From an uncultured Lachnospiraceae bacterium (GTDB lineage: Bacteria > Bacillota > Clostridia > Lachnospirales > Lachnospiraceae), in contig CANRGZ010000001.1 of assembly GCA_947630295.1 (NCBI GenBank), positions 1 to 64,000 on the forward strand: a DNA stretch of 64,000 nt, read 5' to 3'. Made by a program: the position numbers and the translations under genes. How positions within the stretch are numbered: position 1 is the stretch's first letter; each line of letters begins with the position of its first letter. Of the stretch, positions 41,129 through 45,202 are shown one piece after another. Below the pieces are notes generated by a model. That model ran no database searches. It had not been told where the DNA came from and saw nothing but the letters and a program-made list of their open reading frames with translations.

Positions 41129-42136
41129 TTATCTTTTACCGGTACCGGTATGTATGGTTTTTGTTTTTATCAGAAGCCGTATGTCGTCGCCGTCCAGATG
41201 CAGGAAGCTGTAATCTGCGATCAGCCTGGAAAAAACCCGGTCCTGGTACTGCGCTTTGAGTTCCGCAGGCCCCAGATTGGTGGTAAAAACCGTGGATTTT
41301 CCGTGCAGGCGGCGGTATTCGATGCATTCACACAGACTGCTGACGACAAAACTGTTCAAAAGCTCGGCGCCCAGGTCATCCACAATCAGGCAGTCGCAGG
41401 CAGAGAATCCTGCGGCACTGCCGTCATCCTCTTTGCTGCGAAAATGATCGTCGGCCAGCGCTTTGAAAAAGGCCGGCGCATCCAGATGGACCACCGAGTG
41501 AATGGTATCGATGAGATATTTGGCAATACTGTTTGCAAGAAAAGTTTTTCCGACGCCCGTAGGACCGTAGAGAATCAGATTTCCATGTTTCTGATCCAGT
41601 TCCGCCGCAAACCGCCGGCAGGCCAGGAACGCTTCCTTTGCCTGCTGCCGCATGTTTTTTCCGGAAACCGGATCGATCCGGGTATCGGAATAATAATCCA
41701 GTGAAAAGGTTTTGAAGTTTTCTCTTTTGTAGATGTCCTGCCGGGCGCTCTGATCGTAGAGCAGCGCCACCGCCGCTTTGCGGAAGCAGGAACAGGGGGT
41801 TACATCGTCAATGTAACCGGTGTCGTGACATTTGGGACAGCTACAGGGCGTGTCCAGATAGTCGGCCGGATACCCGTGCTGTACCAAAACGAAGGATTTT
41901 TGTTCATCAATATGGCGCAGCGCCTCGGAAAGCGCCTCTGATGCGCCGGACGCACCATGCAGCATCTGTTCGCCGTAACGCAGCGTGACGGCCGATTCCT
42001 CCTGTGCAAGTGCGGCAAAGGCAGGAATGGTTTTGCAGATTTCTTCATAGCGCCGGTCGGCGATCCGTTTATTCGCAAACTGTTTCCTGTTGTAGTCGCG
42101 CATAATGGCGTCATACTGATAATTTGCAAGTGACAT
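41129..42136 (-). CDS. DnaI/DnaC-type replicative helicase loader
   Basis: This 335-residue AAA+ protein has an N-terminal zinc-binding CSCPKCHDTGYI...CSC (about residues 97-116), Walker A GPTGVGKT and Walker B CLIVDDLGAE. It should load the replicative helicase. It sits directly downstream of a DnaD-domain gene, so primosome function is likely. An IstB-like transposition helper is unlikely because no transposase is near. Confidence 0.87.
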   Translation of the reverse strand: MSLANYQYDAIMRDYNRKQFANKRIADRRYEEICKTIPAFAALAQEESAVTLRYGEQMLHGASGASEALSEALRHIDEQKSFVLVQHGYPADYLDTPCSCPKCHDTGYIDDVTPCSCFRKAAVALLYDQSARQDIYKRENFKTFSLDYYSDTRIDPVSGKNMRQQAKEAFLACRRFAAELDQKHGNLILYGPTGVGKTFLANSIAKYLIDTIHSVVHLDAPAFFKALADDHFRSKEDDGSAAGFSACDCLIVDDLGAELLNSFVVSSLCECIEYRRLHGKSTVFTTNLGPAELKAQYQDRVFSRLIADYSFLHLDGDDIRLLIKTKTIHTGTGKR

Positions 42137-42188: not shown

Positions 42189-43238
42189 TCATGACATACT
42201 GCTGCCGGATGAAATCAGTTGTTTCTCCAGTTCTTCCATATCGTAATTCCGGGAAGAACGAAGCGAGGTTCTGCGTTTTGCGGTTTTTCCGGTTTCGGAT
42301 ATCCGCTGCTGGTGTTTTTCATCCAGCAGCGCCACGTCCTTCATGGACTGCACGCCGCCGGAGTACCAGTTCTTCAGAATGGAATCCGCATAGGCAAACT
42401 CCGGTTTGCCGGTGGCGCGGATGGTTCGCTTGCAGGCTTCCAGAATCAGCTCCTCCGAAAGACGGTAGGAGGAGATCCACTTGTCCACAAAGGCACGTTC
42501 TTCTTCTACCAGCGAACGATTGGAGATACCGAAGGTTTTGATCACACCATAATAGATGCAGCTGTTTAAGGAAGTCATGGACTTCGCTTCCGCAACGGTG
42601 GAAATGCCTTTTTTCTTCCATTCAATGGCAACGGCTTCCGCGTAGCGCATACTTCGTTTGCCGCGGGCCGTGCAGTATTCGATCAGATAATCGATCATTT
42701 CACTGTCAAAACCCAGCTGGTCATAAATGAAAATCAGAGATTCCAGCTGGGAGGGTCCCAGAAGCCGTTTGAAGTAAGTCTGGGTGACAAAGGAGGCTTT
42801 TTCAAAATCCTTGTCGTGCAGGAAACGGTCCTTTTCATCGGCCGAGTAGCTTCTGCGTTCATAAAGAACATCCGGAATTTCCGCAGAGGTATCCGCGATG
42901 GTGGCAGCGGTCTCTGCGGTTGCTGCCTGTGCTTCCGAGGTATCAAAGTGATCCAGAAATTCAATAGACTGCAGCTCTTTGCCGTCATAGCGCAGACGAA
43001 TCAGCCCCGCTTTCTCCCAGTACTCCAGTGCTGTCAGAATATAGGATACCGTATGGTCAAAGCGCATGGCAAGTTCTTTGATCGACAGGGAAGAATCTGT
43101 GTGATTGACACAGCGAAGGACAAACAGATAGATCTTTACATACTCTCCGTTTGCCTGCAGCATATATTGATCAATGAACTGATTGGACACCACCGTCGTA
43201 TTCATCTGGTGGTTCATGATGATTTTTAAATTTCCCAT
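42189..43238 (-). CDS. DnaD-domain replication initiation protein
   Basis: This 349-residue protein has an N-terminal winged helix (about 20-85, SLSIKELAMRFDHTVSYIL) and two C-terminal DnaD/DnaB-like regions, the second with FAYADSILKNWYSGGV. It remodels DNA at initiation and brings the helicase loader. ATG 43238 is chosen: the in-frame ATG at 43283 overlaps the -10 box of the promoter and cannot be transcribed as a start. The unit dnaD-dnaI-prs follows. Confidence 0.87.
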   Translation of the reverse strand: MGNLKIIMNHQMNTTVVSNQFIDQYMLQANGEYVKIYLFVLRCVNHTDSSLSIKELAMRFDHTVSYILTALEYWEKAGLIRLRYDGKELQSIEFLDHFDTSEAQAATAETAATIADTSAEIPDVLYERRSYSADEKDRFLHDKDFEKASFVTQTYFKRLLGPSQLESLIFIYDQLGFDSEMIDYLIEYCTARGKRSMRYAEAVAIEWKKKGISTVAEAKSMTSLNSCIYYGVIKTFGISNRSLVEEERAFVDKWISSYRLSEELILEACKRTIRATGKPEFAYADSILKNWYSGGVQSMKDVALLDEKHQQRISETGKTAKRRTSLRSSRNYDMEELEKQLISSGSSMS

Positions 43239-43281
43239 AATACGCTCCCCACACCGGTAACAGATTTCCTTCGAGAGACCC

Positions 43282-43309
43282 ATTATAGCATGAAAAAATC
43301 AAAAAGCAA
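43282..43309 (-). promoter_or_regulatory. Promoter of the dnaD operon
   Basis: On the minus strand, TTGCTT (43309-43304), a 16-nt spacer and an extended TGCTATAAT (-10 at 43287-43282) form a good SigA promoter 44 nt before the chosen dnaD start. Confidence 0.75.
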
Positions 43310-43345
43310 ATACCGCAGCGCCGTCAAAACCGGTGATGCAGCGAA

Positions 43346-43520
43346 TGTGGAAAATGTGGAAAACGCAGGCAAACCGCTATGGAAGCATTTTCAAAAAGTA
43401 ATAAAATTGTCGGAAAAACCGGCAATTTGGAAAATGAAAGCAGCGGAAATCACGGAGGGGAAAATATCCACATTTTATGACAAAAAAAGCGGTGAAGAAA
43501 TCTGTGGAAAATGTGGAAAA
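43346..43520. promoter_or_regulatory. Cluster of DnaA-box-like 9-mers between murC and dnaD
   Basis: TGTGGAAAA (TTTTCCACA on the other strand, which fits the relaxed DnaA consensus TTWTNCACA) occurs four times as two tandem pairs without spacer, at 43346-43354, 43355-43363, 43503-43511 and 43512-43520. A fifth, ATATCCACA, is at 43464-43472 in the opposite sense, with one mismatch. The cluster lies upstream of the dnaD promoter and stops exactly at the murC stop. Confidence 0.6.
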
Positions 43521-44900
43521 CTATTTTCCGAGAAGATGTTCTCCAATATTTACCACGTCTCCTGCCCCCATAGTTATTAACATGTCGCCGTGGATAGAAT
43601 TTTCCAATAAAAATTTTTCGACATCGGAAAATGATGAAAAATATTTGCAGGTTGTACCCAGTGCCTGGATGGCTGCCTGCAGATCTTTTGAGGAAATCCC
43701 GGTGGTATTGATTTCCCGGGCGGCATAGATATCCGTCAGCACCACAAGATCCGCTTTGCCAAGGGCCGCTGCGAAGTCCTTCAGAAAGGCCTTGGTCCTT
43801 GTGTAAGTGTGGGGCTGGAATACAACCACCAGCCGGTCAGGATGGAGTTTCCGTGCTGTGGCAATCGTGGAGGCAATCTCCGTGGGATGGTGGGCATAGT
43901 CGTCGTAAATGGAAATACCCCCCAGTTCCCCTTTGCGTTCAAAGCGGCGGTGGGTTCCGCAGAAAGCCGCAAGGGCGTCCCGGATGCAGTCGAAAGGAAT
44001 GTCAAGGGCGCAGGCTGCCGCAACGGCCGCTAAGGAATTGAGCAGATTGTGTTCTCCCGGAACCCGCAGGGAAATCCTGCCCGCAAAAGACTGCGCAATA
44101 TACAGATCATAGGAAGCGCAGCCGCCGGCGTCGTAAACGACGTTCTTTGCCGTATAGGTGTCGTCCGGTGCAAGGCCGAAGGTGACCAAACGGCAGGGCA
44201 GCGCATCGGTTAAGTATTCCGGATGCGGAATGCTGCCGTTTAAGATCAGAAGGCCGTCTGCCGGAAGGTTTTCGGTGAATTTTTTGAAAGAATGGCGGAT
44301 ATCGTCCAGATCCTTAAAGAAATCCAGATGGTCTTCTTCAATATTTAAAATGATTTCAATGGTTGGATAAAAGTTTAAAAAGCTGTTGGTGTATTCGCAG
44401 GCTTCAGTCAGGAACAGTTCGTGACCGCCGATTCTGAGATTGCCGCCGATACTGGGCAGCAGACCGCCGATGCTGACCGTGGGATCCAGTCCTGCCCGGA
44501 CATACAGCTCCGTCAGCATGGAAGTCGTGGTGGTCTTGCCATGGGTACCGGAAACAGCCACGGACTTGTGATAGTTTTTCATCAGCTGTCCCCAGGCTTC
44601 CGCCCGGGTCAGCATCGGGATCTTTCGCGCTGCCGCTTCCGAAAGTTCTTCGTTTTCACTGTGGATGGCCGCGGTATACACGATCAGATCGATATCGTCT
44701 GTGATATTGGCTTTCCGGTGCCCGATGCGGATGTCGGCGCCCAGGGCCTCCAGCTGGTCGGTAAGTTCGGACTGCCGCAGGTCGGATCCGGAAATGGAAA
44801 ATTTCCTGTCAAGCAGGATGTGGGCAAGGGCGCTCATACTGATGCCGCCGATGCCGATAAAATGTATATGGATTGGATGATGAATATCCAGTTGAAACAT
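43521..44900 (-). CDS. murC: MurC, UDP-MurNAc:L-alanine ligase
   Basis: This 459-residue Mur ligase has IHFIGIGGISMSALAHIL, the ATP site SGTHGKTTTTSML, LNIEEDHLDFF, IYDDYAHHPTEI and a C-terminal MGAGDVVNIGE. It adds L-Ala to UDP-MurNAc. ATG 44900 follows AAAGGAG; the longer frame from 45002 starts in promoter sequence. It lies outside the dcw cluster, about 10 kb away, next to the replication-initiation operon. Confidence 0.95.
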   Translation of the reverse strand: MFQLDIHHPIHIHFIGIGGISMSALAHILLDRKFSISGSDLRQSELTDQLEALGADIRIGHRKANITDDIDLIVYTAAIHSENEELSEAAARKIPMLTRAEAWGQLMKNYHKSVAVSGTHGKTTTTSMLTELYVRAGLDPTVSIGGLLPSIGGNLRIGGHELFLTEACEYTNSFLNFYPTIEIILNIEEDHLDFFKDLDDIRHSFKKFTENLPADGLLILNGSIPHPEYLTDALPCRLVTFGLAPDDTYTAKNVVYDAGGCASYDLYIAQSFAGRISLRVPGEHNLLNSLAAVAAACALDIPFDCIRDALAAFCGTHRRFERKGELGGISIYDDYAHHPTEIASTIATARKLHPDRLVVVFQPHTYTRTKAFLKDFAAALGKADLVVLTDIYAAREINTTGISSKDLQAAIQALGTTCKYFSSFSDVEKFLLENSIHGDMLITMGAGDVVNIGEHLLGK

Positions 44901-45202
44901 AAATGCCGCTCCTTTTGCCGCGGCGGATCGAAAGGATACGGGATCGCCGCTTGTTCTTTTTTTCAATTTCAGTATATCATTTTTCCCAAAAAAGAAAAGC
45001 AAAAACTAAGGCTGCAGCCGGCTTTTCCCGGGCTTTTTTCCCGCATTGTCGAAAAATGGGAATAATACACAAAATTTTTTTGAAATCTATCTTTTTTTTA
45101 TAAATATTATTTATTTATTTGGAAAGATATGCTATACTTACGTAAATACAGCGAACGATCGTTACAGCGGACATGCTGTGTAAATAAGGAAGAGGTGAGA
45201 GC
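44901..45202. other. Divergent promoter region between murC and glgC
   Basis: This 302-bp AT-rich region has a minus-strand extended -10 for murC (TATACT, complement of 44971-44976) and a plus-strand extended TGCTATACT (-10 at 45133-45138) for glgC. The glgC leader has a perfect palindrome AACGATCGTT (about 45154-45163) and an ACAGC/GCTGT hairpin. I saw no gene. Confidence 0.65.

What the first reader, a model, noticed from the sequence alone, without database searches (positions are those of the whole stretch)
43346..43520. DnaA-box cluster upstream of the dnaD-dnaI operon
Four TGTGGAAAA 9-mers (TTTTCCACA in the other sense) occur as two spacer-free tandem pairs 157 bp apart, plus one ATATCCACA between them. 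The consensus TTWTNCACA for relaxed DnaA boxes is met by the four. They lie upstream of the promoter for replication-initiation genes and fill the gap to the murC stop. The two pairs are read in different codons by the spurious frame there, so the repetition is at DNA level. DnaA may regulate dnaD-dnaI, or the site may titrate or reactivate DnaA, like datA or DARS.
Basis: partly seen in the sequence, partly recalled or inferred. Interest (0 to 1): 0.7.

Follow-up and report, generated by a model that had tools for sequence, protein, structure and literature searches.

The report
DnaA-box switch before dnaD–dnaI operon
Between a cell-wall gene and the genes that load the replication helicase, this gut-bacterium family keeps a fixed array of binding sites for the replication starter protein DnaA, partly built into a transcription-stop hairpin and set at a preferred distance from the promoter, so DnaA probably controls its own partner proteins there.

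Summary
Four TTTTCCACA boxes lie as two spacer-free pairs (43346-43363, 43503-43520), and the 18-mer occurs only there in the 1.9-Mb genome. In 135 murC–dnaD loci (nearly all separate genera: Lachnospiraceae plus other families of its order), TTWTCCACA is 76 times denser in the murC–dnaD gap than in flanking sequence (337 boxes against 2.2 in shuffles), nearly all co-oriented with dnaD. Cluster 2 sits at a preferred distance (mode 69 bp; 58 here) upstream of a conserved extended −10 promoter of dnaD. The box variant tracks the variant at the same genome's oriC. DnaA is the only protein with a DnaA DNA-binding domain in the genomes checked. GC skew excludes an origin in two relatives. Best reading: a DnaA-controlled promoter and terminator for the primosome operon, specific to this order and tied to murC–dnaD synteny. 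DnaA binding and the sign of regulation are untested; titration or a datA/DARS-like role is not excluded.

The parts
43521..45002 (-). murC (UDP-N-acetylmuramate-alanine ligase); its stop codon TAG is 43523-43521
   Evidence: Pfam Mur_ligase, Mur_ligase_M and Mur_ligase_C
43503..43520 (-). DnaA-box cluster 1: TTTTCCACATTTTCCACA, abutting the murC stop codon
   Evidence: In relatives the first box starts at the base right after the murC stop in 58 of 126 loci, and 1 base later in 18 more
43508..43517 (-). 5' arm of terminator-like hairpin (TCCACATTTT), made of box 1 core and the start of box 2
   Evidence: (RNA fold -13.7 kcal/mol, z -2.5)
43467..43476 (-). 3' arm of the hairpin (AAAATGTGGA), followed by TATTTT at 43466-43461
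   Evidence: box 2 core to 3' arm end is 42 nt, the commonest span among relatives
43464..43472 (+). inverted relaxed DnaA box ATATCCACA, overlapping the hairpin 3' arm
43346..43363 (-). DnaA-box cluster 2: TTTTCCACATTTTCCACA, 58 bp upstream of the -10 hexamer
   Evidence: both boxes identical in the two congeners while the neighbouring spacer diverges
43282..43290 (-). extended -10 promoter element TGCTATAAT of dnaD
   Evidence: identical in the congeners; an extended -10 (TGN before the hexamer) is present in 110 of 121 relatives with a good -10
42189..43238 (-). dnaD-like primosomal gene, probable start ATG 43238
   Evidence: Pfam DnaB_2 / DDBH2, 2e-37; RBS and start
41129..42136 (-). dnaI/dnaC-like helicase-loader ATPase, next gene of the operon
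   Evidence: Pfam IstB_IS21 and Bac_DnaA AAA+

Best explanation
The 282-bp murC-dnaD gap is a DnaA-responsive control region for the primosome operon dnaD-dnaI. DnaA binds the tandem boxes of cluster 2 just upstream of an extended -10 promoter and modulates transcription of dnaD-dnaI. The upstream position at a preferred distance fits an activator contact more than a repressor that covers the promoter. DnaA binds cluster 1, which is also part of a terminator-like hairpin right after murC; hairpin and bound DnaA would together insulate dnaD from murC read-through. Shown here: the boxes, their conservation, their preferred distance to the promoter, the hairpin with covariation, and co-variation with the genome's own oriC boxes. 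Inferred: occupancy by DnaA, the direction of regulation, termination, and any feedback loop. From published work in B. subtilis, DnaD inhibits cooperative DnaA binding, so a DnaA-DnaD feedback is plausible.
For: Own genome: 18-mer only here; boxes and promoter unchanged in congeners apart from one T-to-A that keeps the W of the consensus, while the spacer diverges. 135 relatives: 8.99 boxes/kb in the gap against 0.118/kb in flanking sequence; 324 co-oriented, 15 inverted; at least 1 box in 115 loci, at least 2 in 98; 337 observed against a shuffle mean of 2.2, maximum 6. Last box to -10 hexamer: 48 of 111 loci in 66-70 bp, smaller peaks near 49, 52, 58-59 and 78-79, although the murC-to-promoter length has IQR 177-254. 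Box variant (TTTT or TTAT) correlates with the same genome's dnaA/oriC locus, rho 0.53, p 0.009, n 23; own oriC is 5 TTTT and 0 TTAT. Only DnaA itself carries a Bac_DnaA_C domain in 8 genomes with a match, and own DnaA keeps the RDHTT signature. Hairpin: CCAC/GTGG stem in 81 of 125 loci; extension pairs beyond the box paired in 82-85% against 38-58% when slid.
Against: No DnaA binding or transcription data. Box pairs here have spacer 0, whereas oriC loci of the same family mostly use 2-3 bp and E. coli double boxes use 2-3 bp (PMC11317965). About 15% of relatives lack a strict box, mostly those whose gap is very short, so the site is dispensable in some lineages. The terminator scan finds no classic terminator in this genome, and its T-run is short (TATTTT).
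Confidence: 0.72

Rival explanations
1. The array is mainly a DnaA reservoir or DnaA-nucleotide site (like the B. subtilis DnaA-box clusters, datA or DARS) whose place beside dnaD is incidental.
For: Several boxes in fixed geometry with an inverted box 42 bp away; oriC-proximal in two genomes, 46 kb and 139 kb from dnaA. B. subtilis has six such clusters that restrain initiation (PMC5295017, PMC13220808).
Against: Cluster 2 keeps a preferred distance to the dnaD promoter in many genera; in the class the boxes follow murC-dnaD synteny rather than mere distance to oriC; no IHF or Fis type sites were looked for or seen.
Confidence: 0.15
2. Another regulator, not DnaA, reads the spacer-free tandem 9-mer.
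For: Spacer 0 dominates at dnaD (148 pairs) but is rare at oriC (1 in 30 loci, leaving out L087); the same 18-mer recurs at one other conserved locus.
Against: The repeat is the DnaA box itself and its variant follows the oriC variant; no second Bac_DnaA_C protein in the genomes checked.
Confidence: 0.08
3. Only an RNA element: the repeats matter as arms of the murC terminator, and the DnaA-box likeness is a by-product.
For: Hairpin after murC with covariation beyond the box.
Against: In most relatives box 1 and all of cluster 2 lie outside the hairpin yet are conserved; the W at position 3 tracks oriC; the hairpin span is kept at 41-42 nt, which a terminator does not need.
Confidence: 0.04
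4. The cluster is a (second) replication origin.
For: Two DnaA-box clusters beside replication genes.
Against: GC skew flips at dnaA, not at dnaD, in two relatives with long contigs.
Confidence: 0.01

Closest known systems
E. coli nrdAB promoter double DnaA box (and other double-box targets, PMC11317965)
   Same: Two co-oriented DnaA boxes upstream of a promoter of a replication-linked operon.
   Different: Spacer 2-3 bp there, 0 bp here; different target genes; here a second cluster lies in a hairpin.
E. coli asnC transcript termination by the DnaA/DnaA-box complex (Schaefer and Messer 1988, seen as a reference in PMC11317965)
   Same: DnaA boxes at the 3' end of a gene that could stop RNA polymerase.
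   Different: Here the box is itself an arm of a terminator-like hairpin, conserved over many genera; blocking is not tested.
B. subtilis DnaA-box clusters outside oriC (Okumura et al. 2012, as described in PMC5295017 and PMC13220808)
   Same: Non-origin clusters of DnaA boxes in a Bacillota (Firmicutes) chromosome, some with transcriptional roles.
   Different: I know of none at dnaD, dnaB or dnaI there (own knowledge); a search of PMC4447404 for these gene names gave no such target.
E. coli datA, DARS1 and DARS2
   Same: Several DnaA boxes in fixed geometry outside oriC.
   Different: No evidence for IHF or Fis sites or for nucleotide exchange or hydrolysis; a promoter-linked position here.

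Membership tests
DnaA-regulated promoter | DnaA boxes close upstream of or in the promoter | tested here: met
   Cluster 2 is 58 bp from the -10 here, mode 69 bp in relatives
DnaA-regulated promoter | DnaA occupies the site and alters transcription | not testable with these tools
   Needs ChIP-seq, EMSA or reporter assays
DnaA-regulated promoter | Boxes match what the organism's own DnaA reads at oriC | tested here: met
   Variant correlation rho 0.53, n 23; own oriC uses TTTTCCACA. Not corrected for phylogeny or GC
intrinsic terminator | Stable hairpin right after a stop codon, followed by a T-run | tested here: inconclusive
   Hairpin and T-run clear in most relatives; in this genome a 10-bp stem, -13.7 kcal/mol, short T-run TATTTT, and no hit in a simple scan
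replication origin (oriC) | Lies at the GC-skew switch | tested here: not met
   Skew flips at dnaA, 46 kb and 139 kb away, in two relatives
datA / DARS | Stimulates DnaA-ATP hydrolysis or nucleotide exchange, with IHF/Fis | not testable with these tools
   Biochemical property
Rfam RNA families | Match to a known RNA family | tested here: not met
   No match at E up to 1 in 43100-43700

The most novel reading that the evidence does not exclude
A composite DnaA switch: one conserved DnaA box serves both as DNA site and as hairpin arm, with a near-constant 41-42-bp (about four-turn) inverted partner, so that bound DnaA gates murC termination while cluster 2 sets dnaD-dnaI initiation, making a DnaA-DnaD feedback loop that defines one bacterial order.
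Probability: 0.2. Interest if true: 0.8.

Novelty: new variant of a known kind. Interest (0 to 1): 0.6.

Why it matters
It offers a conserved, testable cis-element by which the replication initiator may set the level of its own helicase-loading partners in Lachnospiraceae, a major family of gut bacteria for which I found no published DnaA-box work (held library only). It would extend the DnaA regulon to the primosome operon, and the box-in-hairpin layout makes a DnaA-responsive terminator directly testable.

Tried and rejected
Replication origin: rejected by GC skew. Known RNA family: none. DnaA paralogue as reader: none found. Phasing between cluster 1 and cluster 2: spacing runs from about 100 to 190 bp with no evident helical pattern, judged by eye. 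Helical phasing of box-to-promoter distances outside the main peak: R 0.3-0.46 for periods 9 to 10.5, but the 9-bp tandem repeat confounds it, so it is only suggestive. Spo0A-like TTCGACA motifs in the spacer of some relatives: seen, absent in this genus, enrichment not tested. The genome-contig scan returned only the two congeners, both uncultured Lachnospiraceae MAGs. Two paper searches for DnaA boxes with dnaD in Lachnospiraceae or a Firmicutes DnaA regulon gave no relevant paper.

Full report
OBSERVATION. The 9-mer is expected 0.69 times in the 64-kb window and occurs 5 times; no shuffle of 100 reaches that. The tandem 18-mer occurs only at these two places in the 1.92-Mb genome, with no match of the reversed control.

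SETTING. On the minus strand the order is murC, the gap, dnaD (DnaB_2 domain), dnaI-like ATPase, prs. The likely dnaD start is ATG 43238 with RBS GGGGAG; an extended -10, TGCTATAAT, lies at 43290-43282. Cluster 1 (43503-43520) abuts the murC stop; cluster 2 (43346-43363) ends 58 bp upstream of the -10 hexamer (sequence; bin 58-60). The nearest relatives by name are uncultured Lachnospiraceae.

CONSERVATION. In two congeners the boxes are unchanged except one T-to-A that keeps the W of the consensus, while the spacer next to cluster 2 diverges. In 135 loci with murC followed by dnaD (61 genomes of the first set plus a sample of one per genus from the family), the gap holds 8.99 TTWTCCACA per kb against 0.118 in the flanking sequence of the same loci, 324 co-oriented with dnaD and 15 inverted. 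Dinucleotide shuffles of 125 gaps give a mean of 2.2 and a maximum of 6 boxes against 337. Of 62 tandem 18-mer places, I count 37 in murC-dnaD gaps. Relatives with very short gaps have lost the boxes. In a class-wide sample, the four other family members in the fetched set have murC and boxes; 25 loci outside the family have no murC there, 24 of them no box and one a single inverted box (upstream 1500 bp only). So the element goes with the murC-dnaD arrangement.

PROMOTER. An extended -10 was found before dnaD in 110 of 121 loci with a good -10. The distance from the last box to the hexamer is 66-70 bp in 48 of 111 loci, mode 69, with smaller peaks near 49, 52, 58-59 and 78-79, although the murC-stop-to-promoter length varies widely (IQR 177-254). 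Helical phasing of the side peaks is suggestive only, because tandem 9-mers mimic it.

HAIRPIN. Right after the murC stop most relatives can form a hairpin whose stem begins with the box core ATCCACA and its complement TGTGGAT, followed by T's: CCAC and GTGG in the arms in 81 of 125 loci. Among loci with this hairpin the TCCAC-to-GTGGA span is 42 nt in 48 and 41 in 17, with variable loops. Pairs beyond the box are paired in 82% (42-nt class) and 85% (41-nt class), against 39-53% and 39-58% when the partner is slid, and show several pair types, so the pairing is selected. In this genus the best stem uses box 1 (TCCACATTTT/AAAATGTGGA, -13.7 kcal/mol, z -2.5), yet the 42-nt distance from box 2 to the inverted box is kept. 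Termination itself is inferred; the simple scan finds no terminator here.

WHY DnaA. The 9-mer is the DnaA box; own oriC/dnaA locus carries TTTTCCACA (5) and no TTATCCACA, and across 23 genomes the share of TTTT at dnaD follows that at dnaA (rho 0.53, p 0.009). GC content correlates with the oriC share too, and relatedness was not corrected. Only DnaA itself has the Bac_DnaA_C domain in the genomes checked. A caution: pairs here have spacer 0, which is rare at oriC of the family and differs from E. coli double boxes (2-3 bp; PMC11317965).

NOT AN ORIGIN. In G057 and G007 GC skew flips at dnaA, 46 and 139 kb from dnaD. In both, and in the window (skew +0.11, dnaD on minus), dnaD lies on the lagging-strand side.

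LITERATURE. The held library gave no paper on DnaA boxes at dnaD in this family. Relevant neighbours: double DnaA boxes in E. coli (PMC11317965, which also lists the asnC termination work of Schaefer and Messer 1988), DnaA-box clusters of B. subtilis and inhibition of DnaA cooperativity by DnaD (PMC5295017, PMC13220808), and DnaA recruitment of DnaD (Smits et al. 2011, listed in PMC4447404).

VERDICT. A conserved DnaA-box control region for the primosome operon, confidence 0.72 for that reading; DnaA occupancy, sign of regulation and termination are untested.

Noticed in passing
L038-L052 (for example L043:1946-2016): A second conserved non-origin DnaA element: TTATCCACA, 44 bp, then TTATCCACATTATCCACA, often preceded by TTATACACC, between an SH3/NlpC-like gene and hpf or trmB in many family members (gene names judged by eye from translations). 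No such tandem in the window's own genome.
   Followed up: partly
L007, L009, L010, L011, L024, L028, L058 (spacer after the T-run): A conserved GTTTACATAA-like motif follows the hairpin T-run in many relatives; function unknown.
   Followed up: no
L087 / L044 (G018 dnaA region): Very dense oriC: 29 TTATCCACA in a 3.6-kb dnaA locus, with tandem spacer-free boxes unlike other oriC loci examined.
   Followed up: no
L026, L059, L076, L078, L201, L211: Relatives whose murC-dnaD gap is 0-23 bp have lost the boxes, suggesting the operon came under murC transcription.
   Followed up: no
L007, L010, L018, L024, L028, L060: Spo0A-box-like TTCGACA (or its complement) lies in the spacer of some relatives; absent in this genus, enrichment not tested.
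   Followed up: no
G057:C1 and G007:C37 samples (L114-L153): Single TTWTCCACA boxes are strand-biased across each replichore (mostly on the C-rich strand), so orientation alone is weak evidence.
   Followed up: partly
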